Positions 43,553 through 63,898 of a stretch of 64,000 bases of DNA are shown piece after piece (within the stretch, counting starts at the first letter, position 1; each line of letters opens with the position of its first letter). The DNA is from a virus, in IMG/VR virus record IMGVR_UViG_3300022916_000007, positions 28,740 through 92,739 of that record. One strand, written 5' to 3'. A program made the position numbers and the translations under genes. The notes under the pieces are model-generated. The model was not told the DNA's origin. It did no database searches and saw nothing but the letters and a program-made list of their open reading frames with translations.

Positions 43553-44860
43553 TTATATTTCTGATAATCCCATCTCACTTCTTCTTTTATTTAAACTATT
43601 TAAATTTTCTTTAGCATATTGCACCACTTTCTCATCTTTATCTTTCATTAACTTTTTAAATACAGATAGCCAGCCAGTCATTAATGATAAGCTCATTTTA
43701 ACATCCTTACTCTCATCTTCAGCCAACATTAAAGCAATATTTTCAGGCAAATTTGGTCTTAAAGCGATCTTCTCTCTTACTTGTTCTATTGGAAGTTTTA
43801 CTAACCTCATAGTAACTACTTCTCTATCAGTCTTACCCAAATAAACATTGACAATTTTAAAGGCAAGCCTTAAATTCCAACCATTATTATCCTTACTATA
43901 GTTTTTTCCATAATATTTATCTATAATTGCAATTAAGTCTTCATTTGTAAAATCATGACTAGCATTATTATGTTCACTTACCATCACAATCAATTGATCA
44001 TAAGAAACATTTAGAAACACTGTTCTCCTTAGTTCTTTTTTGTTAACAAGTGATAATATTATACTTGAATTTGAATCCAAGTCATTTTCTTGTATAGTTT
44101 TTAATATTTCTGGATCTTTATTTTTTATTCCGTTTTCAAGTTCTTTGTTGTATTTTGAGCTTGGTTCTTCTGTTACACTATTAAGCATCCTATTATTTAT
44201 TACATCATATCTTTTCTCTCCCAAATAATCACTTACTTTGGCTGGAGAGATGGTATCGTCCCATGCGTCAAATATTTCAAAGTCACCATCTTTATTTGTT
44301 GCAACTGCAATTTTATACAATGGATCATGATCATTTTTTGAAAAACCTTTTTTTATGATATAGAAAAATACATTATCTCGCCTAGAATATTCTATAAACC
44401 TATTATCTTCTTTACCTGAAATACACCATTTTGTTTCTGATCCGTATTTACAAGCAGCTTCTTTTGTGTTTACCCTCAATACAATAAACTCTTCATCTTC
44501 ATATATTTTTTCTGCCCCCTTGGAAATCTCTATCCTTTTCTGTCTTTTAGAACCTACCGGAACTTTTAACAACTCATCCTTCAATTGGTATAAATGCTTA
44601 TATTTATTAATATCTCTTTTATCTTTTGGCAACCTATTTTTAACCTTATGAAACTTATTAATTATGTTTACTATTGATTCATAATTGTTTGAATATTTAA
44701 TAAATTGATCTGCCATCCACATTAAATATTTGTTATTGCCTGAAGGATCTTGTTTAGACATCATTTCAATTTCACTACCATAATTAGGATATCTTTTTTT
44801 AACATCGTCAACCCTTGATTCAATTAATAATAATCTAATATATTTTTCTAATAAGTTCAT
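43553..44860 (-). CDS. putative internal head protein: [L/I]-x-E tag + CxYGxxTKWC domain + helical repeats
   Basis: 435 residues. Tag MNLLEKYIRLLLIE-S (predicted cut after Glu14). Linker with DPSGNNKYLMWM (38-49) and LPKDKRDINKYKHL. Domain with EDEEFIVLRVNTKEAACKYG and TKWCISGK (C137, C146), then VFFYII and KIAVATNKDGDFEIFDAWDD. The C-terminal half is helical with short HEAT-like units (LPIEQVREKIALRPNLPENI, DKDEKVVQYAKENL). It overlaps the MORN paralogue upstream by 4 bases. Head packaging is inferred from the tag; the domain's activity is unknown. Confidence 0.75.
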   Translation of the reverse strand: MNLLEKYIRLLLIESRVDDVKKRYPNYGSEIEMMSKQDPSGNNKYLMWMADQFIKYSNNYESIVNIINKFHKVKNRLPKDKRDINKYKHLYQLKDELLKVPVGSKRQKRIEISKGAEKIYEDEEFIVLRVNTKEAACKYGSETKWCISGKEDNRFIEYSRRDNVFFYIIKKGFSKNDHDPLYKIAVATNKDGDFEIFDAWDDTISPAKVSDYLGEKRYDVINNRMLNSVTEEPSSKYNKELENGIKNKDPEILKTIQENDLDSNSSIILSLVNKKELRRTVFLNVSYDQLIVMVSEHNNASHDFTNEDLIAIIDKYYGKNYSKDNNGWNLRLAFKIVNVYLGKTDREVVTMRLVKLPIEQVREKIALRPNLPENIALMLAEDESKDVKMSLSLMTGWLSVFKKLMKDKDEKVVQYAKENLNSLNKRRSEMGLSEI

Positions 44861-45936
44861 TTTTTTAATCCCTTATAATACTCTTCTTTCTTGTCAAGAC
44901 CTACCTTTTGCCAGTATTTATCTTCTGGATATTCCATGCCATTTAACCACCATTCTTTATGGCCGTCAGAATATTCAACAGCAGGACCATCGGTTCGATG
45001 ACGCTTTCCATTTAGATACCATGCTTTTGTCCCATTAGGCCGAACTATTGCAGGGCCATCAGTTCTATGGCGCTTTCCATTTAGAAGCCATGCTTTATAT
45101 CCATCAGCCCGTTCAACAGCAGGGCCATCAGTTCTATGACGCTTTCCATTTAAATACCATTCTTTTCTACCATTAGGCCGAACTATTGCAGGGCCACCAA
45201 TTCGATGACGCTTGCCATTTAGAAACCAATGCCTTCCCCCGTCGCCCCTCTTTATCACCCCCGTAAGCGGAATATACTTAAATATCGAACTTGAAATGTT
45301 ATATTGTTGCAATTTGTCTTCCAACCAACTTAACCTTTCTCCATTATCCCCAGAATCAAATATCTCTTTGTTATTATGCTCATCAACTGCAACTGCAACC
45401 TTCTCCCCACCATCCTTCGGTAATATGTAATATAATGTGACTTCTTCCAAATAATCATCAAAGTAACTCGAATCATCTTTTGATGCTGTACACCATTTGG
45501 TATTACTTCCATAATAACAACTGGCCTCATGAGTCTTCGGAATTAATACCACAACTTCATCATTCTCAAATACGATATCTGCACCTTCCCTCTTTACGGC
45601 CTTTTTTTGCTGTCTCTTTGATTTATCTGGAACTTTACTTAATTCACTTTCAAGATCACTTAAGCTGTTATATTTATATAAATCCCTCTTGTCACCCTTC
45701 AACCTTTGTTGATTTTTATAAAATTTGTTAACTAGATCAATTATTAACTCATAATCATTATTGTTTTTATCATATTGGTCCATCATCCACATTAAATATT
45801 TGTTATTTCCAGAAGGATCTTTTTGTGCCAAAAGCTTTATTGAGGGAACAGTATGATAATTAGAATATTTCTTTATAACATCTTCTAACCTTCCCTCAAT
45901 CAATAATAATCTAATATATTTTTCTAATAAGTTCAC
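44857..45936 (-). CDS. putative internal head protein: [L/I]-x-E tag + CxYGxxTKWC domain + MORN-variant repeats
   Basis: 359 residues. Tag MNLLEKYIRLLLIE-G, linker DPSGNNKYLMWM, domain with EASCYYGSNTKWCTASKDD, VTLYYILPKDGGEKVAVAVD and EIFDSGDNG, then four 23-residue WYLNGKRHRTDGPA repeats and the end WWLNGMEYPEDKYW. The domain is the same as in 43553-44860 but the C-terminal module differs. Stop overlaps the next start (ATGA). Function unknown; delivery with the DNA inferred. Confidence 0.75.
   Translation of the reverse strand: MNLLEKYIRLLLIEGRLEDVIKKYSNYHTVPSIKLLAQKDPSGNNKYLMWMMDQYDKNNNDYELIIDLVNKFYKNQQRLKGDKRDLYKYNSLSDLESELSKVPDKSKRQQKKAVKREGADIVFENDEVVVLIPKTHEASCYYGSNTKWCTASKDDSSYFDDYLEEVTLYYILPKDGGEKVAVAVDEHNNKEIFDSGDNGERLSWLEDKLQQYNISSSIFKYIPLTGVIKRGDGGRHWFLNGKRHRIGGPAIVRPNGRKEWYLNGKRHRTDGPAVERADGYKAWLLNGKRHRTDGPAIVRPNGTKAWYLNGKRHRTDGPAVEYSDGHKEWWLNGMEYPEDKYWQKVGLDKKEEYYKGLKK
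44953..45228 (-). repeat. four tandem 69-bp (23-aa) MORN-variant repeats
   Basis: Codons 237-328 of the paralogue hold four exact 69-bp units (W-x-L-N-G-K-R-H-R-x-x-G-P-A-h). DNA identity between units is high, so copy number can change by slippage or recombination. Confidence 0.88.
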
Positions 45937-46753: not shown

Positions 46754-46777
46754 TTTTTATCCCCTATTATATTTTTA

Positions 46778-47098
46778 TTATTCAAGTTCATCAATTGTAT
46801 CTTGCATTGTATGCATTGAGCCACCCATCCAGTCATTTTCCTTGTCTAGCGCACCTTCAATATGTGCGGCCCACTGCCTTCTCGCCCTCTCATATATCCC
46901 CCTATCATCATCAGCATTACGAATAATATGTTTTGCTTCTTCAACCAACTCTTTCATTTTGTCTTTAATATTTAAAAGCTGTTCAATTGCATCACCATAA
47001 TCATCACCATCATCACCGTAATCATCAAACTCTTCTTTTATAATTTTTTTTATAACAGCCCTTACTCTGCTTTCAGATAACTTTATTTTCTTATTCAT
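46778..47098 (-). CDS. small putative head-packaged protein with [L/I]-x-E tag, acidic body
   Basis: 106 residues: MNKKIKLSESRVRAVIKKII then KE-E (IKE). A very acidic stretch DDYGDDGDDYGD follows, then two helices. Ribosome site AGGAGAAA; 4-base overlap with the HNH gene upstream. Function unknown. Confidence 0.62.
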   Translation of the reverse strand: MNKKIKLSESRVRAVIKKIIKEEFDDYGDDGDDYGDAIEQLLNIKDKMKELVEEAKHIIRNADDDRGIYERARRQWAAHIEGALDKENDWMGGSMHTMQDTIDELE

Positions 47099-47400
47099 TT
47101 TTTTTCTCCTATTATATGTACTTTTGGATCTTCACTTACAATTTTTTTATCATCACCCTCATATCTCCAAACAACAACATTTCCTTTTGTGCTATTAAAC
47201 CTACCTTCAATAATAACTTTTCCTAAATGAACATTTCTATGACAATTACAACAAATATTTACAATATTATATTTTTTATTTTCTCCCCCAAAACACCTTG
47301 ACTGAATATGATGCTTGTCAAGGCCATTAGAAAAACTATTACATATTTCACATATTTTATTTTTTATTGTCATTCTTATAATACTCTTCTTTCTTGTCAA
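47095..47400 (-). CDS. small HNH endonuclease
   Basis: 101 residues with a compact HNH core: CEICNSFSNGLDKHHIQSRC, then NIVNICCNCHRNVHLG. It overlaps the end of the paralogue upstream by 44 bases from the first ATG, or 17 from the ATG at 47373. Probably a free-standing homing endonuclease inserted into the tag-gene cluster. Only a nuclease core is present; a DNA-binding domain is not obvious. Confidence 0.75.
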   Translation of the reverse strand: MTRKKSIIRMTIKNKICEICNSFSNGLDKHHIQSRCFGGENKKYNIVNICCNCHRNVHLGKVIIEGRFNSTKGNVVVWRYEGDDKKIVSEDPKVHIIGEKK

Positions 47401-48571
47401 GACCTACCTTTTGCCAGTATTTATCTTCTGGATATTCCATGCCATTTAACCACCATTCTTTATGGCCATTAGAATCTTCAACAGCAGGACCATCTTTTCG
47501 ATGTTTCCTTCCATTTAAATACCAATGTTTTGTTCCATCAGCCCGTTCAATTGCAGGACCATCTTCTCGATGAAGTTTTCCATTTAGATACCATGATTTT
47601 GTTCCGTCAGGATGTTCATAAGCGGGGCCGTCAGTTCGATGACGCTTTCCATTTAAGTACCATTCTTTTGATTCATCAGAGTCTTCAATAGCAGGACCAT
47701 CTTTTCGATGAAGCTTTCCATTTAGAAACCAATATTTTGTTCCATTAGGACGTTCAATAGCAGGACCATCTTCTCGATGAAGCTTTCCATTTAGATACCA
47801 TCGTTTTTTTCCATTAGGGTGTTCATAAGCAGGGCCATCAATTCGATGAAAATAGCCATTTAGATACCACAATATTGTCCCATCATCCTTTCTTATCATC
47901 CCCGTAAGTGGAATATACTTGAATGTTGAACTTGGAATGTTATATTGTTGCAACTTACCTTCCAGCCACCATAACCTTTTTCCATTATCCCCAGAATCAA
48001 ATATCTCTTTGTCATTATGCTCATCAACTGCAACTGCAACCTTCTCCCCACCATCCTTCGGTAATATATAATATAATGTGACTTTTCCTAAATAATTGTC
48101 AAAGTGACTTGAATCATCCTTTGAAGCTGTACACCATTTGGTGTTGCTTCCATAATAACAACTTGCCTTGTGAGTCTTGGGGATCACAACTGCAACCTTG
48201 TCATTCTCAAACACAGTATCTGCACCTTCTTTTTTTATAATCTTCTTTTGTTGCCTTTTTGACACATCTGACACTTTACCCATCTCATCCTTTAATTGAT
48301 GTAAATGTTCATACTTATAAAGATCTCTTTTGTCTTTTGGGAGTTTATTCTTAACTTTATGAAACTTGTTAACTGTGTCTATTATTGATTCATAGTCATT
48401 TAAATGATCAGCAAATTGTCCCACCATCCACATTAAATATTTGTTATTACCTGATGGATCTCTTCTAGACATCATTTCAATTTCACTACCATAATTAGGA
48501 TATCTTTTTTTAACATCGTCAACCCTTGATTCAATTAATAATAATCTAATATATTTTTCTAATAAGTTCAT
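47357..48571 (-). CDS. putative internal head protein: tag + CxYGxxTKWC domain + six MORN-variant repeats
   Basis: 404 residues. MNLLEKYIRLLLIE-S tag; DPSGNNKYLMWM; KASCYYGSNTKWCTASKDDS; KVAVAVDEHNDKEIFDSGDN; six repeats from Trp235; end WWLNGMEYPEDKYWQKVGLD. First 110 residues are nearly those of 43553-44860 whereas the domain and tail match 44857-45936, so it looks like a recombinant of the two types. The start overlaps the upstream stop by 4 bases. Confidence 0.75.
   Translation of the reverse strand: MNLLEKYIRLLLIESRVDDVKKRYPNYGSEIEMMSRRDPSGNNKYLMWMVGQFADHLNDYESIIDTVNKFHKVKNKLPKDKRDLYKYEHLHQLKDEMGKVSDVSKRQQKKIIKKEGADTVFENDKVAVVIPKTHKASCYYGSNTKWCTASKDDSSHFDNYLGKVTLYYILPKDGGEKVAVAVDEHNDKEIFDSGDNGKRLWWLEGKLQQYNIPSSTFKYIPLTGMIRKDDGTILWYLNGYFHRIDGPAYEHPNGKKRWYLNGKLHREDGPAIERPNGTKYWFLNGKLHRKDGPAIEDSDESKEWYLNGKRHRTDGPAYEHPDGTKSWYLNGKLHREDGPAIERADGTKHWYLNGRKHRKDGPAVEDSNGHKEWWLNGMEYPEDKYWQKVGLDKKEEYYKNDNKK
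47456..47869 (-). repeat. six tandem 69-bp (23-aa) MORN-variant repeats
   Basis: Codons 235-372: exactly 6 x 69 bp, the longest array in the window. Units are of two flavours (KLHREDGPA and KRHRTDGPA) interspersed, suggesting shuffling between paralogues. Confidence 0.88.
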
Positions 48572-49641
48572 TTTTTTAATCCCTTATAATACTCTTCTTT
48601 CTTGTCAAGACCTACCTTTTGCCAGTATTTATCTTCTGGATATTCCATGCCATTTAACCACCATTCTTTATGGCCGTCAGAATATTCAACAGCAGGACCA
48701 TCTTCTCGATGACGCTTTCCATTTATCCACCATGTTTTTATTCCATCAGGATGTTCATAAGCAGGACCATCAGTTCGATGACGTACTCCATTTAAATACC
48801 ATGATTTATGGCCGTCAGAATATTCAATAGCAGGGCCGTCAGTTCGATGACGCTTTCCACTCAAATACCATCTTTTTGTTCCATCAGGATGTTCAACAGC
48901 AGGACCGTCAGTTTGATGAAGCTGTCCATTTAGATACCATAATATTGTCCCATCATCCTTTCTTATCATTCTAGCAAGTAAAATATACTTAAATATCGAA
49001 CTTGGAATGTTATATTGTTGCAACTTGTTTTCCAGCCAACTTAAACCCTTCTTATTATCCCCAGAATCAAATATCTTTTTATCATTATTCTTGTAAACTG
49101 CAACTGCAATCTTCTCCCCACCATCCTTCGGTAATATGTAATATAATGTAACTTTTCCCAAATAACTCTCAAAATAATTTAAGTTTTTCCTTGAAGCTGT
49201 ACACCAACTGGTGTTGCTCCCATAATAACAACTTGCCTTATGAGTCTTGGGGATTACAATCAACACCTTATCGCTTTCAAATACAATGTCTACGCCTTCT
49301 TTTTTTATAGCCTTCTTTTGTTGACTTTTTGATTTATCTGTAACTTTACTCAACTCTTTCCCAAGATCACTTAAGCTGTTATATTTATATAAATCCCTCT
49401 TATCACCTTTCAATCTTTGTTGATTTTTATGAAACTTGTTAACCAAATCAACAACACTCGCTTCATTTTCCCCACCATCAACAACTTGTTGAGTCATCCA
49501 TAAAAGATATTTGTTGTTGCCTGACGGATCTTGACTAGACAAATTGTTAACAAGATCTTTGTTGTTAAGATATTTATTCCGAACATCCTCCAACCTTCCC
49601 TCAACCAACAACAATCTAATGTATTTTTCTAATAAGTTCAC
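48568..49641 (-). CDS. putative internal head protein: tag + CxYGxxTKWC domain + four MORN-variant repeats
   Basis: 357 residues. Tag MNLLEKYIRLLLVE-G; DPSGNNKYLLWM; KASCYYGSNTSWCTASRKN (the Lys before Trp is Ser here); EKIAVAVYKNNDKKIFDSGDN; four repeats; end as in the siblings. It abuts 49642-50079 and overlaps the next gene by 4 bases. The K-to-S change in an otherwise invariant motif may indicate a relaxed or inactive copy. Confidence 0.75.
   Translation of the reverse strand: MNLLEKYIRLLLVEGRLEDVRNKYLNNKDLVNNLSSQDPSGNNKYLLWMTQQVVDGGENEASVVDLVNKFHKNQQRLKGDKRDLYKYNSLSDLGKELSKVTDKSKSQQKKAIKKEGVDIVFESDKVLIVIPKTHKASCYYGSNTSWCTASRKNLNYFESYLGKVTLYYILPKDGGEKIAVAVYKNNDKKIFDSGDNKKGLSWLENKLQQYNIPSSIFKYILLARMIRKDDGTILWYLNGQLHQTDGPAVEHPDGTKRWYLSGKRHRTDGPAIEYSDGHKSWYLNGVRHRTDGPAYEHPDGIKTWWINGKRHREDGPAVEYSDGHKEWWLNGMEYPEDKYWQKVGLDKKEEYYKGLKK
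48664..48939 (-). repeat. four tandem 69-bp (23-aa) MORN-variant repeats
   Basis: Codons 235-326, four units with exact 69-bp period, including a WWINGKRHREDGPA variant. Confidence 0.87.
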
Positions 49642-50079: not shown

Positions 50080-50128
50080 ACCTATTTTAAGTCCTTATAT
50101 ATGCAATAAAAAATGCATAAAAATATAG

Positions 50129-51220
50129 TTAAGAGTCAGTTTGTTTTTTATTGTTGTAATTGTTATAATACTCTTCTTTCTTGTCAAGGCCTACCTTTTG
50201 CCAATATTTATCTTCTAGATATTCCCTTCCATTTATCCACCATTCTTTATGGCCGTCAGAATATTCAATAGCAGGACCATCTTCTCGATGAAGCTGTCCA
50301 TTTAGATACCATTCTTTTGATCCATCAGGCCACTCAAGCGCAGGACCATCTTCTCGATGCAACTTTCCATTTAGATACCAATGTTTTGTTCCATTAGAAT
50401 ATTCAATTGCAGGTCCGTCAGTTCGATGAAGCCTCCCATTTAACCACCATTCTTTTGATTCATTAGGATGTTCATAAGCGGGACCATCAGTTCGATGAAG
50501 TTCTCCATTTAAATACCATTCTTTTGCTCCATCATTTCTTTCTATCATCCCCGTCAACAGAACATACTTAAATGTCGAACTTGGAATGTTATATTGTTGC
50601 AACTTGTCTTTCAGCCAACTTAAATTCTTTCCATTATCCTTAGAATCAAACACCTTTTTATCATTATCTTCATCAACTGCAACCGCAACCTTCTCCCCAC
50701 CATCTTTTGGTAAAATGTAATATAACGTTACTTTTCCTAAATAGTTATCAAAGTGACTTGAGTTGTCCTTTGAAGCTGTACACCACTTCGTATTGCTTCC
50801 ATAATAACAACTGGCCTTATGCGTCTTGGGGATTAATACCACAACTTCATCATTCTCAAATACAATGTCTGCGCCCTTTTTCTTTACAATCTTCTTTTGT
50901 TGACGTTTTGACACATCTGACACTTTGCCCATCTCATCTTTTAATTGATATAAATGTTCATACTTATAAAGATCTCTTTTATCTTTTGGGAGCTTATTCT
51001 TAACTTTATGAAACTTATTAACTGTGTCTATTATTGACTCATAATTATTTATATGATCAATAAATTGTCCCACCATCCACATCAAATATGCATTGTTATT
51101 AGAGGGATCGTTCTCAGACATTGTTTGTATAAACCCACCATAATCAGGATACTTCTTTTTGACATCACCAACTCTTGATTCAACCAACAATAATCTAATA
51201 TATTTTTCTAATAAGTTCAT
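50129..51220 (-). CDS. putative internal head protein: tag + CxYGxxTKWC domain + four MORN-variant repeats
   Basis: 363 residues. Tag MNLLEKYIRLLLVE-S; DPSNNNAYLMWM; KASCYYGSNTKWCTASKDNS; KVFDSKDNGKNL; four repeats; end WWINGREYLEDKYWQKVGLD plus a short extra tail. It is the first of this tag-gene run after the Vsr-like endonuclease. Function unknown, delivery with phage DNA inferred. Confidence 0.75.
   Translation of the reverse strand: MNLLEKYIRLLLVESRVGDVKKKYPDYGGFIQTMSENDPSNNNAYLMWMVGQFIDHINNYESIIDTVNKFHKVKNKLPKDKRDLYKYEHLYQLKDEMGKVSDVSKRQQKKIVKKKGADIVFENDEVVVLIPKTHKASCYYGSNTKWCTASKDNSSHFDNYLGKVTLYYILPKDGGEKVAVAVDEDNDKKVFDSKDNGKNLSWLKDKLQQYNIPSSTFKYVLLTGMIERNDGAKEWYLNGELHRTDGPAYEHPNESKEWWLNGRLHRTDGPAIEYSNGTKHWYLNGKLHREDGPALEWPDGSKEWYLNGQLHREDGPAIEYSDGHKEWWINGREYLEDKYWQKVGLDKKEEYYNNYNNKKQTDS
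50243..50518 (-). repeat. four tandem 69-bp (23-aa) MORN-variant repeats
   Basis: Codons 235-326, exact 69-bp period, units WYLNGELHRTDGPA, WWLNGRLHRTDGPA, WYLNGKLHREDGPA and WYLNGQLHREDGPA. Confidence 0.87.
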
Positions 51221-51236
51221 TATATATAATTATCAA

Positions 51237-52373
51237 TTAAACTTGTCTATTTTCCATTTTTTTACCTAAATTTTCTTTTAACATTGGACTGTTATTTAAA
51301 AACTCTTTAAAATCATACTCCCATATTATCTGATAGGGAATGTTTTGTTCTTTGAAGTAGTCTATTTTCTTTTGATCAATTAAAATAGTACTTGCAATTT
51401 TTCTATATTGAGATTTTTTCAAATTATTTTTCTTTTCATATATTATTGCTTTTTTCATTAAGTCATTGTGTGTCTGATCTTTTCCATGCCAATAATCACC
51501 ATTAAAATTAACATATGTATTTTCTGGAATAATGTAGAAATCCATTATCCATCCATTTTTAAAACTCTGTCTTTCAATCTCATCTTCGGAATACCAAAAC
51601 AAAAGATATTCATAATATATGCTTTCTATTTCTGATTTAGCAAAACAATCACCTTCTCCATATCGCTTTTTCCTTGTTTGTTGTGTTTTCTTTATACGCT
51701 TTCTATGGAAATCAGGATCTTTACTTATTGTTTCTTTTCTTTTTTTATTTGCTTCTTCAATTTGTTTTTTTGTTCTTTTATTAAGACCAGCTTTAATACG
51801 ATTAATATCCCTTATACGCTCTTCTTTAGTTCTATTGTTTAATCTTTCTTTAGACATTTCAGCCCACTTTTGTTTATCTTCTTCAGTTTTATTATTCCAC
51901 CTTAGTTTTGTGTTCCTCCTTTGTTTTTCTGAATATGCTTTCTTTTCATCTTCTGACCTATTATGCCATGTCTTTTTAAACTTTCTTGCCCTTTTTTGTT
52001 TCTCATCATTAGTCTTGTTGTTCAAAGTTTTAGATGTTTTTTCATATGCCAGCCTTTTTTCCTCTTCAGTTCTATTGTCATTCCATTTTTTAATACTTTT
52101 GCTCACCTTCTCACTAACAACCAGTCGTTCTTCATCTGTTCTGTTTTGGTGCATAATTTTCATTACCCTGCTTAAATGCTCATTTCTTTCTGGACGTGTG
52201 TTAGCACAAATTCTTGAACAAAAATGATTTTCTTTTTGACTATACCAAGTAGCAAACCTTTTTTCAAATATTTTTCCACAATAATCACACTTTAAAACTA
52301 AAATCTCTTTGAACTTTTTACTATTAAATTTAGACTTACTAACCACCTTGACCTTTTTAACTTCCAACAACAT
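51237..52373 (-). CDS. free-standing Vsr-like (EDxHD-type) homing endonuclease with tandem DNA-binding repeats
   Basis: 378 residues. N-terminal zinc finger CDYCGKIFEKRF...FCSRIC. Then about seven degenerate repeats of 'W-x-N-(R/K)-T-x-E-E-(K/R)' (residues 70-205), probably NUMOD-type DNA-recognition helices. The catalytic domain follows: SEIESIYYEYLLFWYSEDEI, WIMDFYIIPENTYVNFNGDY, then WHG and IIWEYDFKEFL. The NFNGDYWHG core is typical of Vsr-like homing nucleases. It sits between the tail sheath terminator and the tag-gene cluster. Confidence 0.82.
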   Translation of the reverse strand: MLLEVKKVKVVSKSKFNSKKFKEILVLKCDYCGKIFEKRFATWYSQKENHFCSRICANTRPERNEHLSRVMKIMHQNRTDEERLVVSEKVSKSIKKWNDNRTEEEKRLAYEKTSKTLNNKTNDEKQKRARKFKKTWHNRSEDEKKAYSEKQRRNTKLRWNNKTEEDKQKWAEMSKERLNNRTKEERIRDINRIKAGLNKRTKKQIEEANKKRKETISKDPDFHRKRIKKTQQTRKKRYGEGDCFAKSEIESIYYEYLLFWYSEDEIERQSFKNGWIMDFYIIPENTYVNFNGDYWHGKDQTHNDLMKKAIIYEKKNNLKKSQYRKIASTILIDQKKIDYFKEQNIPYQIIWEYDFKEFLNNSPMLKENLGKKMENRQV

Positions 52374-55442: not shown

Positions 55443-58283
55443 TTATGCAAATTCAACACCAGCATTTGTAATAACAAAATCGATACTAATGAATTCTGCC
55501 GCCTTTGTTGGGGCCAAGTAGATCATCCCCTTCATCACATAATTTTCAACATCAGACTGTGAAGTTGTGGTATCATCCATGACAACCTTGAACTTCTCTA
55601 ATCCTGACTGAGATTGTACACGTTCTAAAATAGGATTAACCATAGAAACAAAACGTTCCCATGTGCTAAAAGTATTTGGCTCGAAAAGCAATTTCTGTGC
55701 AACAGACTTGACTGCTCTCCTAACTTCCAACACCATTCTTCGGACATTAACACGATCAAGGGCAGATTGTGCAGCTTGAAGTGTTTTCTGACCAAGAATT
55801 AAAACACCCTCTTTAGGGAACTGTGCAATTGGATTAACATTTGCATCATAAAGATCACCACGATCTTTGTGAGTCAATCTAACATCTGCATCTCTAACAT
55901 TAGTTAATCCACCCCTATTAAATCCAGCAGGGGCAAACCAAGGCTGAGCTACTTTATCATTAAACGCAAATGCACCCATCACAACAACTGAAGGCGGAAC
56001 AGTTACTACTTTATTATTTGCCTCGTCATATAAACGAACATCAGGCCAATAAGTTGCAGCAAAGTTTGTATCAAGGCCTCTTGTCTCCAATTGACTAATC
56101 GTATTTTCAACTGATGGCCTACCACTTCCTGCGACATCTTGCCCAACTGGATTATCAAAAATTACATCACCATCTTCATCAACATTTTCAGCATCCATAA
56201 TATAGAAACAATCAAACCTGTCCTCAACGGCATCTACTGCATAGTCAGTAACCAATCCATCTCGAATATCAGGAATTGCTAACAAGTTTGTATCTACATT
56301 TTCTGGATTTGCAACAATATCAATTGCAGTTCTATATGACTTAACTGTATTACAATCCAATGAATTACCATGAACAACATTTCTCACAGTGAACTCAGTT
56401 GCTTGCATATCATCATCTCTCATTAGACGTGAATTTTTATCTAGCATATCTGTGCCATCAAAACCACCATAAAAGAAGAATGAGAATTTAGCTACATTTG
56501 CAAACTTATTTAGATAAGTTGAGTCTGGTTTGAATGCATTTGAAGCTGCAAGATCATAAGTTCCTTTATATTGCCAATATTTTGCATCTGACAATTTTGA
56601 AGAAGACCCTGCTGTATCAATTTTTTCTAATGAGAATTCATTATACCAACTACCAACAGTTGCGCTATAATCATTCATATTTGAACCAGACAACAATACA
56701 TCTTGTCCGGCATGATTAATTCCCATAAACCTAGCCATACTATCTAGACAATTATTATGTTTTAATGAGGCATTAATATAACCATCATCTCTTCCTGACC
56801 ACACACTTTCTGCTGAGCCTGAAGCTCTTTCAAAGTGTACACCCCAATGTAGTTTTGTGTTAAGGGTTTTGTTTGTGCTAGACTTTTTACCCACGTTAAC
56901 CCTAAATGGGATTGGAGGGATGGTCGAATCAATAATTGTTGCTTCATCACCAAAGAGCCTATTTTTTGTATGCATTAATGGATATCCCTTAAATCCCCAT
57001 GGAAGGGCATCGGTTGGAACCACACCATTTTTAAGATCATTACTTGGAATTACTCTGATATGAGTTGATCTGTTTGCATAATCACCATCTACTACTAACC
57101 TTCTTTCGTCATCATCACTTTGATCCCAATCAAAATAAATACTTTTATCTCCAATTCTTCTAATGATATAATTTTCTGAATTTGGGTTAAGATCTAAGTT
57201 TGTATGTTGTTCCATAATAACTGGATCGTTATCTGTATCATCAAACTTTCTTACCACTAAAGTAAAGGTTCCATAAAGTTCGGTATCAGAAACAGGCCTT
57301 CTTACATTTGTAACAGAGATCTTAATATTTTCATTAGCCCATTTTCCATCAGAAAGTGACTCAAAATAGAAAAGATCATACTTTCTTGTACCAAATCTTT
57401 GTGAAATAACATAAGGAGATTTTGAAGTTGTATATCTACTTTGATAATCACCATATTTTTTATCCCAATTTTCGCCAGCATCAATATGTGAACCACTAAG
57501 AATTTCTACAGTTTTGCCTACAGTAGTCGCACGTTCAATATCAACAGGGAAGTCAAGGTAAAGTAAGTGCCTTTCTGTGCCAAATAAATCTGGATCAGTA
57601 TTGAGGGTATTACCAACATACTCAGTATCTGATGGGTTTAATGATGCACTTAATTTTCTAACATTAAGACTACCAGCAACATTTCCACCAGTCCAATCTG
57701 ATGATGAAGAAATAAACAAGTGAAACTTGTTACCTGTTGCCGTACAAGTATCATTAAAAGTTTCTAGGTTAGCAATTGGAACATCATCTTCAGTGGTATC
57801 TGCAACCCTGATTCTTGTTGAACCACTTGTCATAATGACGGCTCTCACCAAGTTTGCTGATGAATCTTCTGCTGAGCCTGAAGCTTGTCCAAGGAATTGT
57901 GAATCTGTAGTGTCTGTATGGTTTGCACAAAGGAATTGTACCCTTCCATCACTACCAGAAAGCAAAAAACCAGCATTGGAAACTGTACCATCAGTTGCAC
58001 TAACTGCTGCTGTTCCACCACCCAAAACTCTCATATAAACGCCAGATGTGCTACTCCTTAAAAACTCTCTCATTGCATATGGACCATAATAATCAGAGTC
58101 CAAATCACCAAATGTTGCAACAAAGTCTTTCCATTGAGCAAATAGTACTGGTACAAAGGCAGGCCCTTTTTCTGCCGTACCTACAACAGTACCAGGAGTA
58201 CCAAATGGTTTAATCTGAGTTGGGGTTAATTCGATTTCAGTCTGAAAAATACCAGGACTTCTAAATGTCTTCTCTGTTGCCAT
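55443..58283 (-). CDS. tail sheath protein, T4 gp18-like (copy 2)
   Basis: 946 residues, with the same start (SPGIFQTEIELTPTQIKPFG) and the same C-terminal domain as copy 1 (NDKVAQPWFAPAGFNRGGLT, GQKTLQAAQSALDRVNVRRM). The middle is much more different. Stretches of C-terminal DNA are almost identical between the copies (for example around 52750 and 55745), suggesting gene conversion. Either mixed sheath polymers or two alternative sheaths. Confidence 0.92.
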   Translation of the reverse strand: MATEKTFRSPGIFQTEIELTPTQIKPFGTPGTVVGTAEKGPAFVPVLFAQWKDFVATFGDLDSDYYGPYAMREFLRSSTSGVYMRVLGGGTAAVSATDGTVSNAGFLLSGSDGRVQFLCANHTDTTDSQFLGQASGSAEDSSANLVRAVIMTSGSTRIRVADTTEDDVPIANLETFNDTCTATGNKFHLFISSSSDWTGGNVAGSLNVRKLSASLNPSDTEYVGNTLNTDPDLFGTERHLLYLDFPVDIERATTVGKTVEILSGSHIDAGENWDKKYGDYQSRYTTSKSPYVISQRFGTRKYDLFYFESLSDGKWANENIKISVTNVRRPVSDTELYGTFTLVVRKFDDTDNDPVIMEQHTNLDLNPNSENYIIRRIGDKSIYFDWDQSDDDERRLVVDGDYANRSTHIRVIPSNDLKNGVVPTDALPWGFKGYPLMHTKNRLFGDEATIIDSTIPPIPFRVNVGKKSSTNKTLNTKLHWGVHFERASGSAESVWSGRDDGYINASLKHNNCLDSMARFMGINHAGQDVLLSGSNMNDYSATVGSWYNEFSLEKIDTAGSSSKLSDAKYWQYKGTYDLAASNAFKPDSTYLNKFANVAKFSFFFYGGFDGTDMLDKNSRLMRDDDMQATEFTVRNVVHGNSLDCNTVKSYRTAIDIVANPENVDTNLLAIPDIRDGLVTDYAVDAVEDRFDCFYIMDAENVDEDGDVIFDNPVGQDVAGSGRPSVENTISQLETRGLDTNFAATYWPDVRLYDEANNKVVTVPPSVVVMGAFAFNDKVAQPWFAPAGFNRGGLTNVRDADVRLTHKDRGDLYDANVNPIAQFPKEGVLILGQKTLQAAQSALDRVNVRRMVLEVRRAVKSVAQKLLFEPNTFSTWERFVSMVNPILERVQSQSGLEKFKVVMDDTTTSQSDVENYVMKGMIYLAPTKAAEFISIDFVITNAGVEFA

Positions 58284-58405: not shown

Positions 58406-59563
58406 TTAATTTGCAAAAAAGTCGTCAAGCTGCTCAACATCATTAAAAAACCAAACTTTCTCTGAAGCTTTTTTTGTTTTATTTTTATTTTTATGTGATG
58501 AGTCTCCACCTTTTCTCTTCCGTATCTTTCTATTTGCCTTTCTCCCCATCTTTGATAACTCATCCACTTGATCAACATCATCACCCAGCTTATCTGGATC
58601 ATATAACGTTGAAGAGCCGTTGCCATCAAAAGTTTCAAACCTTAATTGAGGGGCATTCACCATTTTTGTTATTGGCACACTTTCACTATCAGTTGCACCC
58701 ATAATATAAGCCATAACCTTAACAGTAAACACACTTTTAACTAGTCTTTCTGTGTCTGAAAAATCGTCTTTGTTTGATTGATTTACAATATTTTTCTCTA
58801 GAATAGCAATATAATAATATCCTTTGTCAGTATCTAGTTTTATTGAATTCTTCCAATCACATCCCCTTAACACACTTTCAACAATTGTATTGTTTTGAGT
58901 TGAATATTGTGTCCATACAATTACCTCATAAGTTATTGTAACAAAATCTGGGAACCCCATTGAGTATATCTCATATATATTTCTTGGGTTTAACTTTGAT
59001 TGATTGATTTGCTTTCCCTTATACAACACTCCATTAAATGGTTTTCCTGGAGGTGTTCTTCTTGATCCTTCTTGATCACTTTCTGTTGAGCCAGATAAGT
59101 GTACATTCTTTTGGTTAATTAAGCCTGTTTGGTTAATTAGGTTTTGGTAGTTTGGATTGTCTGCCCCTATCTTTCTTTTTATTATTAGCTCCCCAAAATC
59201 ACCTGGAATGCCATGCATGTCTTCTGTTTTTTCTGTGTCTCCCTTGCTAACTGTTATTAGTGGAAGTATTAACCTACCATCACCATCTCTTAGTGGCTTT
59301 CTTTTTCTTACTAATGCCCACCTTTCTCCAGTTGCAAACATGACAGGAACTTTTTTACTTTCCTTGTTAATCTTTAAAAATATATTTAAGCTCTCGTCAA
59401 AATGATTATATATTGCTTTATCAATATCTTTTATTGTTGATGAAGGTAATACAAAGTCTTCTGTTGTTGTACCAGGACGATCCTTTACATTTTCATTTTT
59501 AACCCTTTTGTTTGAAAATGTTGGGCTTTCTCCCCTTTGTAAGTAATCTTCTCTATTAGGCAT
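58406..59563 (-). CDS. putative neck / tail completion protein (gp15- or gp3-like candidate)
   Basis: 385 residues directly upstream of the sheath genes. AIYNHFDESLNIFLKIN, PVMFATGERWALVRKRKPLR, GRLILPLITVSKGD and, later, YEIYSMGFPDFVTITYEVIV with WTQY recall T4-like tail-terminator/sheath-stabiliser proteins ('FPD-x-A-x-V-x-Y...W-T-Q-Y'). The C-terminus is basic (GRKANRKIRKRKGGDSS). The assignment rests on pattern and position only. It overlaps the gene upstream by 8 bases. Confidence 0.65.
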   Translation of the reverse strand: MPNREDYLQRGESPTFSNKRVKNENVKDRPGTTTEDFVLPSSTIKDIDKAIYNHFDESLNIFLKINKESKKVPVMFATGERWALVRKRKPLRDGDGRLILPLITVSKGDTEKTEDMHGIPGDFGELIIKRKIGADNPNYQNLINQTGLINQKNVHLSGSTESDQEGSRRTPPGKPFNGVLYKGKQINQSKLNPRNIYEIYSMGFPDFVTITYEVIVWTQYSTQNNTIVESVLRGCDWKNSIKLDTDKGYYYIAILEKNIVNQSNKDDFSDTERLVKSVFTVKVMAYIMGATDSESVPITKMVNAPQLRFETFDGNGSSTLYDPDKLGDDVDQVDELSKMGRKANRKIRKRKGGDSSHKNKNKTKKASEKVWFFNDVEQLDDFFAN

Positions 59564-60848
59564 ACTTTTCTAGCCTCTCTTTTTCTGGTGTTTCCTTATA
59601 TCTATCATATTCGTCTTTATAATCTCTTTCAATAATTTGTTTCAATGCCCGTTCCCTAACAATTAAACTGTTATCATAATAAGCTAGCCTAAATAATGCA
59701 TTCATTGGAGTATAGCTAGACCACGCCAACACTTCCCTAACCTTACTACACTCACCACTTAACAATATATCAATAACCCCTTTATCTTTCATAGCAACAA
59801 TGTTTCTAATTAACTGAAACTTAACATACTCATGATCGTCCTTAGACAATTCTCTTAAGATATTAATTGGAGTTTTTTCATTTATAGCAATCCCGGCCCT
59901 CACTTGAAAATTATCATGATTTGACAACAACTTCATAGCTTTTATTGTCAGTGATGGGTTTCCTGTTAACGGCAACAAAACTTCAGGATAACTTTCATAC
60001 CCTGCCAAATATTCTAAAACATTACCTTGTGTGTTAAAATCACTAGCTAATCGTATTTTATATGAAGTACCTAATTTCATAACATTTTTTGGATTATTAT
60101 TTATCTCTTCCATAAACTTTTCTTTACAAACAGACTTTGAATTTTTTGCCCAATTTACATTAATTCTTGCTAATGCTTTTGATATAGAGTTGTCAATTTC
60201 AGGAGTTTCGGCCTTTGATAACAAATCTAATACATGAAATTTTGTATCAGTTGCATCAAATGTTTCATCCCTTCCATCAGTACCAACAGCAATTGCAACC
60301 TTTGCATACTTATCATGAGGGGCTTTACTTATAAGATCTTTGTTAAGTAAAAAATAAAACACAACATTATCCATAGAATATTGTATAAACCTGTTATCTC
60401 TTTTTGCTGAAATGCACCATTTTGTTCCTGCACCATATTTACAAGCAGCATCCTCTGTGTTTACCCTGAAAGCTAATACATTATCATCTTCATAAACCCT
60501 TTCTACGCCACCTTTTGAAATATCTTTTTTTTGCTGCCTTTTTGAAGTTATAGCTATATTGTCAAGAAACGCACTTAGCTCTTCCATACTAACAAATTTG
60601 TTTATGTCTCTTTTGTCTTTTGGCAACCTTTGTATATTTCTATGAAACTGTTTGACCAACTCAAGCCTATCCATTAAAGGATAATTCTTTTGCCTTACCA
60701 TCCACATTAAGTATTTGTCATTTCCTGACGGATCATTATTAGACAAATATTCTAATCCTGGCTCCTTTAACTCTGGATCAATTTTTTTCGCATCATCAAA
60801 TCTTGATTCAACTAACAGATTTTTTATATATTGTTCTAATAAGCGCAT
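59556..60848 (-). CDS. putative internal head protein: [L/I]-x-E tag + CxYGxxTKWC domain + LRV/HEAT-like repeats
   Basis: 430 residues. Tag MRLLEQYIKNLLVE-S; DPSGNDKYLMWM; DAACKYGAGTKWCISAKRDN; KVAIAVGTDGRDETFDATD. The C-terminal half has repeats such as NHDNFQVRAGIAINEKTPIN and SKVREVLAWSSYTPMNALFR, close to the leucine-rich-repeat-variant pattern. It sits between the ADP-ribosyltransferase-like gene (adjacent upstream) and the neck gene. Confidence 0.75.
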   Translation of the reverse strand: MRLLEQYIKNLLVESRFDDAKKIDPELKEPGLEYLSNNDPSGNDKYLMWMVRQKNYPLMDRLELVKQFHRNIQRLPKDKRDINKFVSMEELSAFLDNIAITSKRQQKKDISKGGVERVYEDDNVLAFRVNTEDAACKYGAGTKWCISAKRDNRFIQYSMDNVVFYFLLNKDLISKAPHDKYAKVAIAVGTDGRDETFDATDTKFHVLDLLSKAETPEIDNSISKALARINVNWAKNSKSVCKEKFMEEINNNPKNVMKLGTSYKIRLASDFNTQGNVLEYLAGYESYPEVLLPLTGNPSLTIKAMKLLSNHDNFQVRAGIAINEKTPINILRELSKDDHEYVKFQLIRNIVAMKDKGVIDILLSGECSKVREVLAWSSYTPMNALFRLAYYDNSLIVRERALKQIIERDYKDEYDRYKETPEKERLEKYA

Positions 60849-61640
60849 CTATCTAACCTCCCTCCTAAACAGATCAGCAACGTCTTTTTTAGATATATGT
60901 TTGCCCACATTACTTATGAGTCCATATGGGATAATACAAACCTCCTCACAATTAATAGGCCCTAATGAAATAACTTCACTTTCTTGTCTCATTAAATTCG
61001 AACTATGTACATGATGAGGAAAGAACTCTTTATATTTGCCCTTATACTTACCACTTAAGTAGTAATTATATGGCTTAATTTGCCTATAATCAAACAGAAA
61101 ATTATTATTAGCAACATTGGCCTTATATATTACATAAACAAGATTTTTATTAGAATATATATCTCTATAAAATCTATTATAAAGATAAACAGAAAAACCT
61201 AATGCCGTTCTTTTTTTATAAGACCATGAAGAAATCATTTTTCTTGGTTCATATACATAATTTTCAATTTTAACAACTAGATTTTCAGTAGTTATTTCAT
61301 CAAAAATATTGTTTCCAAACATTTCCTCTGCCAAAGTAGTTGATAGTTGCATACCACGATAAACTTTTCCAAGCTTTGGCTTCAAAACATCCTTATATAA
61401 ACCCTGATCCATCATATCTTTTAACTTATCAAGCTGCTTCAAAAACTTAGCACTTATACGACGATCTTGCACCCAATCAGACAAAGCTTTATATAACTTT
61501 CTTTCCTCATCAACATCTTTTTCTGGATTTTCTTTTGTTGGCAGACCCCTCGGCTCTCCAAACAAATATTTACCATACAGCCCATTAACTAACTCCCTCT
61601 CAATTAAGTTTTTTATATATCGTTCTAATATGTCCATCAA
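60849..61640 (-). CDS. putative head-packaged ADP-ribosyltransferase (Alt-like), R-S-ExE
   Basis: 263 residues. Tag MMDILERYIKNLIE-R, then a helical region and an ART-like catalytic layout: KVYRGMQLS (Arg95), MISSWSYKKRTALGFS (S-x-S at 138-140) and RQESEVISLG (Glu220, Glu222 as ExE). This is the R-S-E order of arginine-specific mono-ADP-ribosyltransferases. T4 Alt is such an enzyme, carries a capsid targeting sequence, and is injected to modify host RNA polymerase. Target here unknown. It overlaps the gene upstream by 4 bases. Confidence 0.75.
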   Translation of the reverse strand: MMDILERYIKNLIERELVNGLYGKYLFGEPRGLPTKENPEKDVDEERKLYKALSDWVQDRRISAKFLKQLDKLKDMMDQGLYKDVLKPKLGKVYRGMQLSTTLAEEMFGNNIFDEITTENLVVKIENYVYEPRKMISSWSYKKRTALGFSVYLYNRFYRDIYSNKNLVYVIYKANVANNNFLFDYRQIKPYNYYLSGKYKGKYKEFFPHHVHSSNLMRQESEVISLGPINCEEVCIIPYGLISNVGKHISKKDVADLFRREVR

Positions 61641-62236
61641 TAATCATCATCTTCAGTAAACGGTGAAGTTACACCATGGTCCAACAACCTCTCAATCTTC
61701 CCACCTTCAACCAACTCTCTCCTGTCACCCTCATCTTCATCACCAGCAATCTGTGTAAACGTATCCCTTTCTTCGTCTGTTTCCAGGCTATCTTTATAAA
61801 ACTGACCTTTTCTAACAGACTTACAAATAGCTTTTGTCATAACTTTGTGCTCAGCTTGTCCATAAATAAGGTCTGGTTGTCCTAAATTTATAACTTCAAA
61901 AAATATTGCTCCATATTCAACAAAATCACCCTCTCTCAACTTTATGTTCTTATCTGAAAGATCCTCTTCATGAAAATAAACTTCAATTGAATATTTCTTA
62001 TCCACACCAAAATTTGTTGTTTCAGTTGTTGAACCTTCCCAATTAACCAAACATCTTATATTTATTGGAGTCTCTGTTACCTTTACCTCAGCCTCATCAT
62101 ATAGCTCATCCTTTTTTGTCTTCTCTTCTGATACTGGATGATATATTATCTCTTCTCCAATGATATCTTTTATTAACTCTTTGTTAATATCAGAAATAAG
62201 CTGAAGCTCTCTTTTTGTTATAAATAATCTACCCAA
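61637..62236 (-). CDS. putative virion (neck or head-tail) protein
   Basis: 199 residues. A central beta-rich domain (YSIEVYFHEEDLSDKNIKLR, EGDFVEYGAIFFEVINLGQP, then DLIYGQAEHKVMTKAICKSV, RKGQFY) is followed by an acidic disordered tail. From memory the 'G-D-h-V-E-Y...h-x-E-V...I-Y-G-Q' pattern occurs in structural proteins of marine myoviruses. The opening helix could also carry a tag (IIGE near 25-28), less convincing than in neighbours. Confidence 0.6.
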   Translation of the reverse strand: MGRLFITKRELQLISDINKELIKDIIGEEIIYHPVSEEKTKKDELYDEAEVKVTETPINIRCLVNWEGSTTETTNFGVDKKYSIEVYFHEEDLSDKNIKLREGDFVEYGAIFFEVINLGQPDLIYGQAEHKVMTKAICKSVRKGQFYKDSLETDEERDTFTQIAGDEDEGDRRELVEGGKIERLLDHGVTSPFTEDDDY

Positions 62237-62315
62237 TTAATTTGTATTCCAATTAATTTAAATTTACTCTCTATATATTAATTATATTTTAATTTAGGAA
62301 AAACACTATAATATT

Positions 62316-62564
62316 TTAAGCTGCTAAAGTTAATTGTCGTTTGTTATTTTTGAACTCTCTCTCCATTGCAATAACAATGTCTTCAATTAACCCTTGAGCT
62401 TTAATTAAGTTTCTTTTTTCTTCCCCTGAGAATGATAACTGATAGGTTGATAGAAGGTTGACAACTTGACTAAGTGTGCTTGCAACTTTTTTCTTTTTGC
62501 CATTTGTAGTCTCTGTAATTACTTTTAAAATTAGATTTTCAATTTGTGCTTCAGTTAGTTGCAT
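62316..62564 (-). CDS. small putative head-packaged protein with [L/I]-x-E tag
   Basis: 82 residues: MQLTEAQIENLILKVITE-T (ITE), then KKK and two helices (KVASTLSQVVNLLSTYQLSF; LIKAQGLIEDIVIAMEREFK). Helical-hairpin protein with no known family. Located between the neck candidate and the large paralogue 62582-63898. Confidence 0.62.
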   Translation of the reverse strand: MQLTEAQIENLILKVITETTNGKKKKVASTLSQVVNLLSTYQLSFSGEEKRNLIKAQGLIEDIVIAMEREFKNNKRQLTLAA

Positions 62565-62581
62565 TTATTTAACTCTCCCAT

Positions 62582-63898
62582 TTAAAAATTATATTCAATT
62601 GTTTGCATTAGTTTATTATATTCTTCCTCTGTAAAGCTTTGTTTGTGATCTTTTACATAATCATAAACATCCTTTATAAAATACATTGTTGATTTATTTT
62701 CTAACATTAATTTTATTATCTCATATGTTAAATCATCCCTTAGCAACATGTAAGAAATTACATCGTGACTTTGACTTCCCATAGTTATGACATTCTTCAA
62801 TGCATAATAGGGCGTTCTTTCATTCAAAACCGCTGACCTAGCAACCATCCAACTTTGAGTCGCATCATTATAATCAAAAACCATCCTACCCAAAACATCA
62901 ACAGGGGTGTTCTCATGCAGAGCGACTAAAGAGCGAATTGATGGTGGAAATCGTCTATCATCACTTAAGTAAGTTAATAATCTAGGCGTGTTGTTTGAAT
63001 GTGATACCCACTTGTTTATATTGTGAAGAAAAAAATCCATATTATTAAAAACAACTTCTAATATATCCTCTGGCAAGTCCTTATCTTCTAACAAATCGTG
63101 TACTGCGGCATCGTTATAACTATAATCTAAAATTTGTTTCGGATTATTATAAATTTTTTCTACTATTTTATCAACATAATAATTTTTACCTAATTTTTTA
63201 GAATCACTTTCAATTAAATGCAATGCCTTTTCGACCAACATATCATATGGTGGATAATGTTCAATATCACCAACAACATTTCTTTCATTATCTTCAGAGT
63301 CAAATATGTCAACTTTTCCAACATTTGAACCAACAGTATAAACAGCAAAGGCGATCTTGTTTAATACAGAGCCGTCATTTTCTATATTTTTTGCAATCAT
63401 ATAATAAAATATAACGCCCTCTTCTGAATATTTTTCAAAGTGTCTTTCATTTTTACTCGTTATGCACCACTTTGTTCCTGCACCATATTTACAAACAGCA
63501 TCCTTTGTGTCCACCCTTATTAACAAAGCTTCATCATCTTCATATATTTTTTCTGCACCTTCAGAAATTTCTATTTTTTGTTGTCTCTTTGATTTTTTTG
63601 GAAGCTTATCTAACTCTTTTGACAGTTCACTAAGATTTTTATAACTATAAAGATCTTTCTTATTACCTTTCAACCTTTGTTGGCTTTTATGAAATAAGTT
63701 TACTAACTCAACAATATCATCTAAACCATAGCCTGTTGAAGCCTGCTTAACCATCCATTCAAGGTATTTATTATTGCCTGAAGGGTCTTGTTTAGATAAT
63801 AATTCAACTTTATTTGCAATATTAGGATATTTTATCTTTATATCATCAACTCTTGATTCAACCAACAATAATCTTATATATTTTTCTAATAGGTTCAT
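62582..63898 (-). CDS. putative internal head protein: [L/I]-x-E tag + CxYGxxTKWC domain + LRV/HEAT-like repeats
   Basis: 438 residues. Tag MNLLEKYIRLLLVE-S; DPSGNNKYLEWM; DAVCKYGAGTKWCITSKNER; KVDIFDSEDNERNV. The helical C-terminal half includes RFPPSIRSLVALHENTPVDV and AVLNERTPYYALKNVI, the same unit type as in 59556-60848. The start overlaps the stop of the MORN paralogue upstream by 4 bases, repeating the gene-pair junction seen at 44.86 and 48.57 kb. Confidence 0.75.
   Translation of the reverse strand: MNLLEKYIRLLLVESRVDDIKIKYPNIANKVELLSKQDPSGNNKYLEWMVKQASTGYGLDDIVELVNLFHKSQQRLKGNKKDLYSYKNLSELSKELDKLPKKSKRQQKIEISEGAEKIYEDDEALLIRVDTKDAVCKYGAGTKWCITSKNERHFEKYSEEGVIFYYMIAKNIENDGSVLNKIAFAVYTVGSNVGKVDIFDSEDNERNVVGDIEHYPPYDMLVEKALHLIESDSKKLGKNYYVDKIVEKIYNNPKQILDYSYNDAAVHDLLEDKDLPEDILEVVFNNMDFFLHNINKWVSHSNNTPRLLTYLSDDRRFPPSIRSLVALHENTPVDVLGRMVFDYNDATQSWMVARSAVLNERTPYYALKNVITMGSQSHDVISYMLLRDDLTYEIIKLMLENKSTMYFIKDVYDYVKDHKQSFTEEEYNKLMQTIEYNF

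What the first reader, a model, noticed from the sequence alone, without database searches (positions are those of the whole stretch)
60849..61640. Alt-like ADP-ribosyltransferase with its own packaging tag
The R...S-x-S...E-S-E layout (Arg95, 138-140, Glu220/Glu222) follows an [L/I]-x-E tag. It is half the size of T4 Alt. It supports reading the rest of the tagged set as injected effectors.
Basis: partly seen in the sequence, partly recalled or inferred. Interest (0 to 1): 0.75.

Follow-up and report, generated by a model that had tools for sequence, protein, structure and literature searches.

The report
Phage enzyme with a head-packaging leader

Summary
The ORF is real: minus strand, 263 aa, probably starting at ATG 61637. 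The R-S-ExE layout is not chance: loose pattern in 4 of 20,000 shuffles and 2 of 843 ORFs; a block profile built only from other phage ADP-ribosyltransferases (ARTs) ranks it first of 843. It is an orphan: no useful Pfam, NCBIfam, PDB or phage-database relative. T4 ModA and ModB, proven ARTs, also have no credible Pfam hit. The fold test failed for lack of homologues (pLDDT 33). Which glutamates form ExE is unsettled (E220/E222 or C231/E233).
The leader MDILERYIKNLIE is shared with unrelated neighbours (0 of 20,000 internal segments score as high). In a relative, probably another part of the same phage, leader-bearing genes flank a T4-gp21-type head protease. The main leader-bearing family keeps [LI]xE-x-R in 34 of 34 aligned members. 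In 3 of 3 relatives holding both flanking genes, the ART and its partner are absent.
Best reading: a packaged, injected R-S-E-clade ART that works like T4 Alt but is not a demonstrable Alt-family member. 'All tagged proteins are injected effectors' is weakly supported. Packaged phage ARTs are a published theme.

The parts
60849..61637 (-). orphan R-S-E-type ADP-ribosyltransferase gene (262 aa from ATG 61637; 263 aa from TTG 61640)
61599..61637 (-). leader MDILERYIKNLIE with [LI]xE (LIE) end; shared with unrelated neighbouring proteins
   Evidence: rank 11 of 1,333 N-termini; 0 of 20,000 internal segments as good
61356..61358 (-). R95 codon (VYRGM), putative NAD-binding Arg
   Evidence: chosen without prompting by block PSSM and by hmmsearch
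61221..61229 (-). S138-W139-S140 (S-x-S, followed by A146 and F149)
   Evidence: (ModA SASYDKNIALHF versus SWSYKKRTALGF)
60975..60983 (-). E220-S221-E222, candidate ExE
   Evidence: register not settled, the PSSM prefers residue 232 (81)
60942..60950 (-). C231-E232-E233, rival position of the catalytic glutamate
   Evidence: BLASTP segment to T4 Alt, 12 of 23 identical; PSSM
59556..60848 (-). adjacent leader-bearing GTxWC-family protein (430 aa), absent with the ART from the site in relatives
61637..62236 (-). upstream flanking gene of the insertion site (199 aa, in the tail/connector operon, function unassigned)
   Evidence: homologues in 4 of 47 related records
58406..59563 (-). downstream flanking gene (385 aa), next to the tail sheath
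   Evidence: homologues in 7 of 47 related records
62582..63898 (-). GTxWC-family protein with leader MNLLEKYIRLLLVE
50129..51220 (-). GTxWC-family protein with leader, WYLNG repeats (PF20530)
48568..49641 (-). GTxWC-family protein with leader
47357..48571 (-). GTxWC-family protein with leader
44857..45936 (-). GTxWC-family protein with leader
43553..44860 (-). GTxWC-family protein with leader

Best explanation
The gene encodes a stand-alone mono-ADP-ribosyltransferase of the R-S-E clade with a short N-terminal address leader. Inferred course: late in infection the leader (MDILERYIKNLIE) docks the protein on the prohead core, as the capsid-targeting sequences of T4 internal proteins do; a gp21/S77-type protease cuts after the [LI]xE glutamate; the ~249-residue enzyme stays in the head, is ejected with the DNA, and uses NAD+ to ADP-ribosylate host proteins (acceptor unknown; arginine is typical for R-S-ExE enzymes) before phage genes are expressed. 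It works like T4 Alt, but the leader is one that this phage also places on its GTxWC-repeat proteins, and the ART sits with one of those in a two-gene insertion. Shown here: the ORF, the motifs, the shared leader, the head protease next to the same leader in a relative, and the empty site in relatives. Inferred: fold, activity, cleavage, packaging, ejection, target.
For: Residues in place. Loose R-S-ExE pattern in 4 of 20,000 shuffles. Three-block PSSM from 17 other phage ARTs: 31.9 bits, first of 843 ORFs (next 23.4); 500 shuffles mean 10.9, SD 3.7, max 28.7; R95 and S138 chosen without prompting. Profile of those 17 ARTs ranks it first of 1,874 sequences, E 0.0068, on the helix plus YRG segment. 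S-x-S-Y-x-K-x-x-A-L-x-F shared with T4 ModA. T4 ModA has 0 Pfam families and ModB only a 0.17 hit to an unrelated family, so lack of a Pfam hit is uninformative. Leader: 0 of 20,000 internal segments. GTxWC family: [LI]12 34/34, E14 34/34, R16 34/34, leader 5-45 residues. S77 protease in 16 of 25 related virus records plus PA5oct and T4; in L009 the order is leader-bearing 357-aa gene, head maturation protease, leader-bearing 77-aa gene, with terminase and portal nearby. L009's tetranucleotide correlation with the window is 0.83 (the rest of its contig 0.70-0.75), versus 0.81 for the window record's own other end and 0.35-0.63 for six other relatives and PA5oct. Empty site in 3 of 3 records with both flanks. 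Papers: PMC9026906 (section 2.6) on capsid-targeting sequences; PMC9503650 (passages) on head-packaged phage ARTs.
Against: No homologue in 50,697 phage records at E 0.01 (7), in 47 related records at E 1 (36) or in genome contigs; in viral contigs only its own contig. No Pfam, NCBIfam, PHROGs, PADLOC or PDB match of value. A larger, more diverse ART profile still ranks it first but only at E 0.12; Alt-only and Mod-only profiles did not list it among their best; hhalign probability 7.5 and 21. Fold prediction failed. E-block register ambiguous. MAFFT aligned only the R motif, not S or E, to 38 ARTs. No S77 protease in the window's own record, which is a fragment. No virion proteomics.
Confidence: 0.6

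Rival explanations
1. It is a leader-bearing ART whose substrate is not host protein: it RNAylates, modifies nucleic acid, or simply hydrolyses NAD+ to starve or blind host defence.
For: T4 ModB also transfers NAD-capped RNA (PMC10468400, passages); if the real register is C231/E233 the first Glu is missing, which would argue against an arginine transferase. PMC9503650 (passages) mentions nucleic-acid-modifying viral ARTs.
Against: A literal E-S-E-V-I is present, typical of arginine-specific R-S-EXE enzymes (PMC10468400, passages).
Confidence: 0.2
2. It is not an ART: a virion internal or core protein with the same leader whose R-S-E residues are coincidental or relics.
For: Orphan with no library match and no model; a larger ART profile gives only E 0.12.
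Against: Three ordered blocks with ART-like context, shuffle z about 5.7, first of 843; strict pattern 0 of 20,000 shuffles.
Confidence: 0.13
3. A real ART, but the leader is a shared assembly helix (for example tail or core docking) and is neither cleaved nor a packaging signal; the enzyme acts in the cell that made it.
For: The genes sit among tail sheath and tube genes; no cleavage data; [LI]xE occurs often by chance.
Against: [LI]xE-x-R kept in 34 of 34 aligned family members although leader length varies from 5 to 45; the same leader next to the head maturation protease in L009; PA5oct relative annotated as found in virions by ESI-MS/MS.
Confidence: 0.2
4. The leader match is only recent fusion debris from the adjacent paralogue (59556-60848) and has no function in the ART.
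For: The closest leader is that of the adjacent gene, about 8 of 12 positions identical by eye (letters).
Against: The leader has diverged yet keeps hydrophobic spacing, Y-I and an LxE; another non-family protein carries it too, the 77-aa protein beside the protease.
Confidence: 0.1

Closest known systems
T4 Alt (T4Alt/VIP2 family, PF03496)
   Same: R-S-ExE chemistry implied; short N-terminal leader ending in an [LI]xE site (MELITE); head-packaged and injected in T4 (PMC9026906 and PMC10468400, passages)
   Different: 682 aa with ~370 residues before the ART domain; the window protein is 263 aa, has no PF03496 hit, no significant pairwise similarity and a different gene neighbourhood
T4 ModA / ModB (Mod family)
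   Same: small ARTs without a credible Pfam hit; S-x-S-Y-x-K-x-x-A-L-x-F shared with ModA; long S-to-E spacing (67-74 residues in six Mod proteins, 82 here)
   Different: ModA and ModB are made in the cell from early genes (PMC10468400, passages) and are not head-packaged (recalled); no such leader; about 20% identity in a MAFFT alignment
T4 internal proteins IPII/IPIII with the capsid-targeting sequence MKTYQEFIAE
   Same: one leader on otherwise unlike proteins, ending in an IxE cut site; aromatic at position 7 and Ile at 8 as in MDILERYIKNLIE (ATG numbering)
   Different: IPs are not ARTs; in the window the leader is also on large GTxWC-repeat proteins
MuF- or portal-fused and polyvalent phage ARTs (PMC9503650 passages; PMC5512222 seen only as start of abstract in search listings)
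   Same: ART predicted to be delivered from the head
   Different: there the address is a fused structural domain; here it is a 13-residue leader on a stand-alone enzyme

Membership tests
R-S-E clade of ADP-ribosyltransferases | Arg in [Y/W]RG context | tested here: met
   R95
R-S-E clade of ADP-ribosyltransferases | S-x-S/T strand motif about 25-45 residues after the Arg | tested here: met
   S138/S140, 43 residues on
R-S-E clade of ADP-ribosyltransferases | E-x-E at the catalytic position | tested here: inconclusive
   E220-S-E222 exists, but PSSM and BLASTP prefer the 231-233 register
R-S-E clade of ADP-ribosyltransferases | split NAD-binding beta-sandwich fold | tested here: inconclusive
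   single-sequence AlphaFold2, pLDDT 33
R-S-E clade of ADP-ribosyltransferases | NAD-dependent transferase activity | not testable with these tools
   needs biochemistry
T4Alt/VIP2 family (PF03496) | profile match above the family cut-off | tested here: not met
   no hit; T4 Alt itself hits at 5.8e-36 (59)
T4Alt/VIP2 family (PF03496) | Alt-type long N-terminal region | tested here: not met
   263 aa against 682
Mod family | sequence similarity to ModA/ModB beyond motifs | tested here: not met
   P0001 not among the listed hits of the Mod-only profile; hhalign probability 0.34
capsid-targeting-sequence (T4 internal-protein type) cargo | short N-terminal leader shared by unrelated proteins | tested here: met
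capsid-targeting-sequence (T4 internal-protein type) cargo | [LI]xE cleavage motif at the leader end | tested here: met
   LIE 12-14 (26); family column 34 of 34 (105)
capsid-targeting-sequence (T4 internal-protein type) cargo | cognate S77 prohead protease in the same phage | tested here: inconclusive
   absent from the fragmentary record; present in L009 with the same leader
capsid-targeting-sequence (T4 internal-protein type) cargo | cleaved protein found in virions | not testable with these tools
   no proteomics for this phage

The most novel reading that the evidence does not exclude
This phage lineage uses one short leader as an open loading address: any enzyme that acquires it by gene insertion is packed, cut and injected. 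Payloads then include this founding member of a new R-S-E ART family, seven GTxWC-repeat proteins and perhaps a Nudix hydrolase with a leader-like start elsewhere in the record, so that an exchangeable arsenal is delivered before transcription.
Probability: 0.3. Interest if true: 0.68.

Novelty: new member of a known kind. Interest (0 to 1): 0.42.

Why it matters
If right, the leader gives a sequence-only way to list the injected proteins of a jumbo-phage lineage that cannot be cultured, and adds an ART so divergent that standard libraries miss it. The question of which phage proteins enter the cell with the DNA becomes testable by fusing 13 residues to a reporter.

Tried and rejected
Library scans gave nothing for the ART. 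Homologue hunts failed: phages tblastn, viral contigs, genome contigs (47 stretches matched a pattern, none confirmed), 47 related records, PF03496 in the same 47 (37). AlphaFold2 on the single sequence failed. I ran no further search on an ART alignment, because MAFFT aligned only the Arg to 38 known ARTs and a model built on it would have been circular; it went to the GTxWC family (mean pLDDT 66; blocks of 73-96 over residues 1-140). That model had no PDB match at E 0.001 (125); in BFVD it found the PA5oct structural protein and, weakly, PcfJ-like proteins.

Rejected: reading [LI]xE alone as a tag (too frequent by chance); filing the protein as an Alt-family member (PF03496 and length not met); treating the missing Pfam hit as evidence against an ART (ModA and ModB have no credible hit either).

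Selections: A5 holds 34 proteins; one search listed 59 non-redundant family members out of 92 with the motif, and about 25 of these were left out (cut at contig ends, long, or divergent) while one window member was added by hand. Among those left out, five (L060_6016, L062_6436, L040_1274, L023_5276, L065_8575) lack such a leader and PA5oct gp279 has a different one (LYE-D), so 34 of 34 describes A5 only. Searches with 47 records used 46 of the 61 distinct virus loci first tried, plus PA5oct; small contigs were dropped. One search used 27 records.

Full report
WHAT IS THERE. The window is the last 64,000 bases of a 92,739-base virus record, 33% G+C, from a large contractile-tailed phage: tail sheath, tube, RNR, DnaB helicase, UvsX. 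The finding is one minus-strand ORF of 263 aa. Its ATG at 61637 overlaps the stop of the upstream gene (TGATG), a sign of coupled translation, and is likelier than the TTG one codon earlier. R95, S138-W-S140 and E220-S-E222 are in place. It is 39%, not half, of T4 Alt (682 aa).

IS IT AN ART? Libraries say nothing: no useful hit in Pfam, PHROGs, NCBIfam, PADLOC or PDB sequences. That is no evidence against it: T4 ModA has no Pfam match at E 1 and ModB only an irrelevant one at 0.17, while T4 Alt hits PF03496 at 5.8e-36. I therefore built tests from 17 Alt and Mod ARTs of other phages, without the window protein. A three-block score (Arg, Ser and Glu neighbourhoods with spacing limits) gave 31.9 bits, first of 843 non-redundant ORFs (second 23.4); 500 shuffles of the protein averaged 10.9 (SD 3.7, maximum 28.7); the program chose R95 and S138 itself. 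A loose R-S-ExE pattern is present in 4 of 20,000 shuffles, 2 of 843 ORFs and 40 of 48 known phage ARTs; a strict one in 0, 1 and 3. An HMM of the 17 ARTs ranked the protein first of 1,874 sequences at E 0.0068, on the helix-plus-YRG segment. Against: a bigger profile with 48 ARTs still ranked it first but at E 0.12; Alt-only and Mod-only profiles did not list it among their best; hhalign probabilities were 7.5 and 21. The serine segment SWSYKKRTALGF matches ModA SASYDKNIALHF.

THE GLUTAMATES ARE NOT SETTLED. The block score placed the Glu block at residue 232 rather than 220, and BLASTP aligned SLGPINCEEVCIIPYGLISNVGK with the Alt segment that holds its ExE (12 of 23 identical). Under that register the first Glu is C231 and the catalytic one E233. 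E220-S-E222-V-I is a literal ExE and I still favour it, but a Glu222 mutant alone would be an incomplete control.

FOLD. A single-sequence AlphaFold2 run gave pLDDT 33, which decides nothing.

THE LEADER. Seven window proteins begin MNLLEKYIRLLL[VI]E or close to it and share a GTxWC domain. Scoring 1,333 ORF N-termini with their leaders, the first two proteins outside that family were a 77-aa protein (MNLLEKYIENIIKEE, L008) and the ART (MDILERYIKNLIE, rank 11); 0 of 20,000 internal segments reached the ART's score, and none of the top 45 came from the L210-L214 stretches full of baseplate and other genes. In an alignment of 34 family members from many phages the leader length varies from 5 to 45 residues, yet [LI]xE-x-R is kept in 34 of 34; five family members left out of that alignment lack such a leader. 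T4 IPII and IPIII share MKTYQEFIAE on otherwise unlike proteins; in T4 the first ten residues suffice for packing, positions 4 and 7 target and 8 and 10 govern cutting (PMC9026906, section 2.6 read). The window leader has an aromatic residue at 7 and Ile at 8 as well (ATG numbering).

THE PROTEASE. The S77 (gp21-type) protease is not in the window's record, which ends within this gene cluster. It is in 16 of 25 related virus records tested, in PA5oct and, as control, in T4. In L009, which carries the identical MNLLEKYIRLLL leader, the order is leader-bearing 357-aa protein, head maturation protease (phrog_207, 5.8e-44), leader-bearing 77-aa protein, with terminase and portal upstream. L009 resembles the window in tetranucleotides (0.83, the rest of its contig 0.70-0.75, against 0.81 for the window record's own other end and 0.35-0.63 for six other relatives and PA5oct), shares 80% DNA identity in one tagged gene, and a contig with the same cluster (L010) comes from the same sample (3300024258) as a contig identical to the window. 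It is probably another part of the same phage; that is inference.

CONTEXT. The ART and the leader-bearing gene 59556-60848 lie between genes 61637-62236 and 58406-59563. Homologues of the two flanks occur together in 3 of 47 related records (G004, G005, G009), adjacent with no ORF between in all three; gene order is swapped in G005. So the ART came in with, or beside, another leader-bearing gene, or both were lost from the relatives.

MECHANISM. Most likely: packed by the leader, trimmed after LIE, ejected with DNA, then ADP-ribosylation of host protein before phage transcription. Packing, trimming, ejection and target are inferred. The GTxWC relative in PA5oct, gp279, is annotated as found in virions by ESI-MS/MS, which supports packing of that family but not injection.

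COMPARISON WITH PRINT. [quoted passage not shown] PMC7824862 (passages) notes ARTs in all three jumbo-phage groups; PMC10468400 (passages) gives R-S-EXE for ModA and ModB and injection for Alt. Searches of an open-access library listed no paper on this protein or this leader, judged from titles and abstract starts; that is a limited search. Hence a new, highly divergent member of a known kind, with an address that may be of wider use.

Noticed in passing
L004:12330-12818 (own record, outside the window): A Nudix hydrolase (PF00293, 9e-13) whose first ~20 residues look like a leader ending ILAES; possibly a second leader-bearing enzyme, and one that could act on ADP-ribose.
   Followed up: partly
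window 43553-51220, 59556-63898: Seven paralogues with a GTxWC domain (phrog_17056) and swapped C-termini: WYLNG repeats (PF20530) or HEAT/LRV-like helices. The same WYLNG repeats stand alone at 17439-17798 and 38568-38999 and in L004.
   Followed up: partly
window 36088-36432, 45940-46230, 46253-46753, 46778-47098, 49642-50079, 62316-62564: Small proteins with other amphipathic N-termini rich in IIKEE / LLxE (for example MKLTETKLKKIIKEE, MKNLNSFIELVLLEG), perhaps a second class of leader.
   Followed up: partly
window 52448-55387 and 55443-58283: Two tandem, very long tail-sheath-like proteins (979 and 946 aa) about 43% identical to each other.
   Followed up: no
window 12289-14202: DnaK/Hsp70-like protein about 50% identical to proteins of huge metagenomic phages up to 735 kb.
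   Followed up: no
window 10829-12285: Three adjacent proteins starting K[VI]R[QT]GFVSNSS; function unknown.
   Followed up: no
window 8951-17435, 39048-41370 and L004/L005: A large family of small proteins with a YKxGDIVW-like motif scattered through the genome.
   Followed up: no
L006 (PA5oct gp279): GTxWC homologue next to the terminase gene, annotated as a virion protein by ESI-MS/MS, with a differing leader (MKLFEVFTLYE).
   Followed up: partly
window 41496-42554 and 51237-52373: Two proteins that both carry LKCDYC/LRCDYC zinc-like motifs, one matching HNH endonucleases, beside the tagged-gene cluster; likely homing endonucleases.
   Followed up: no
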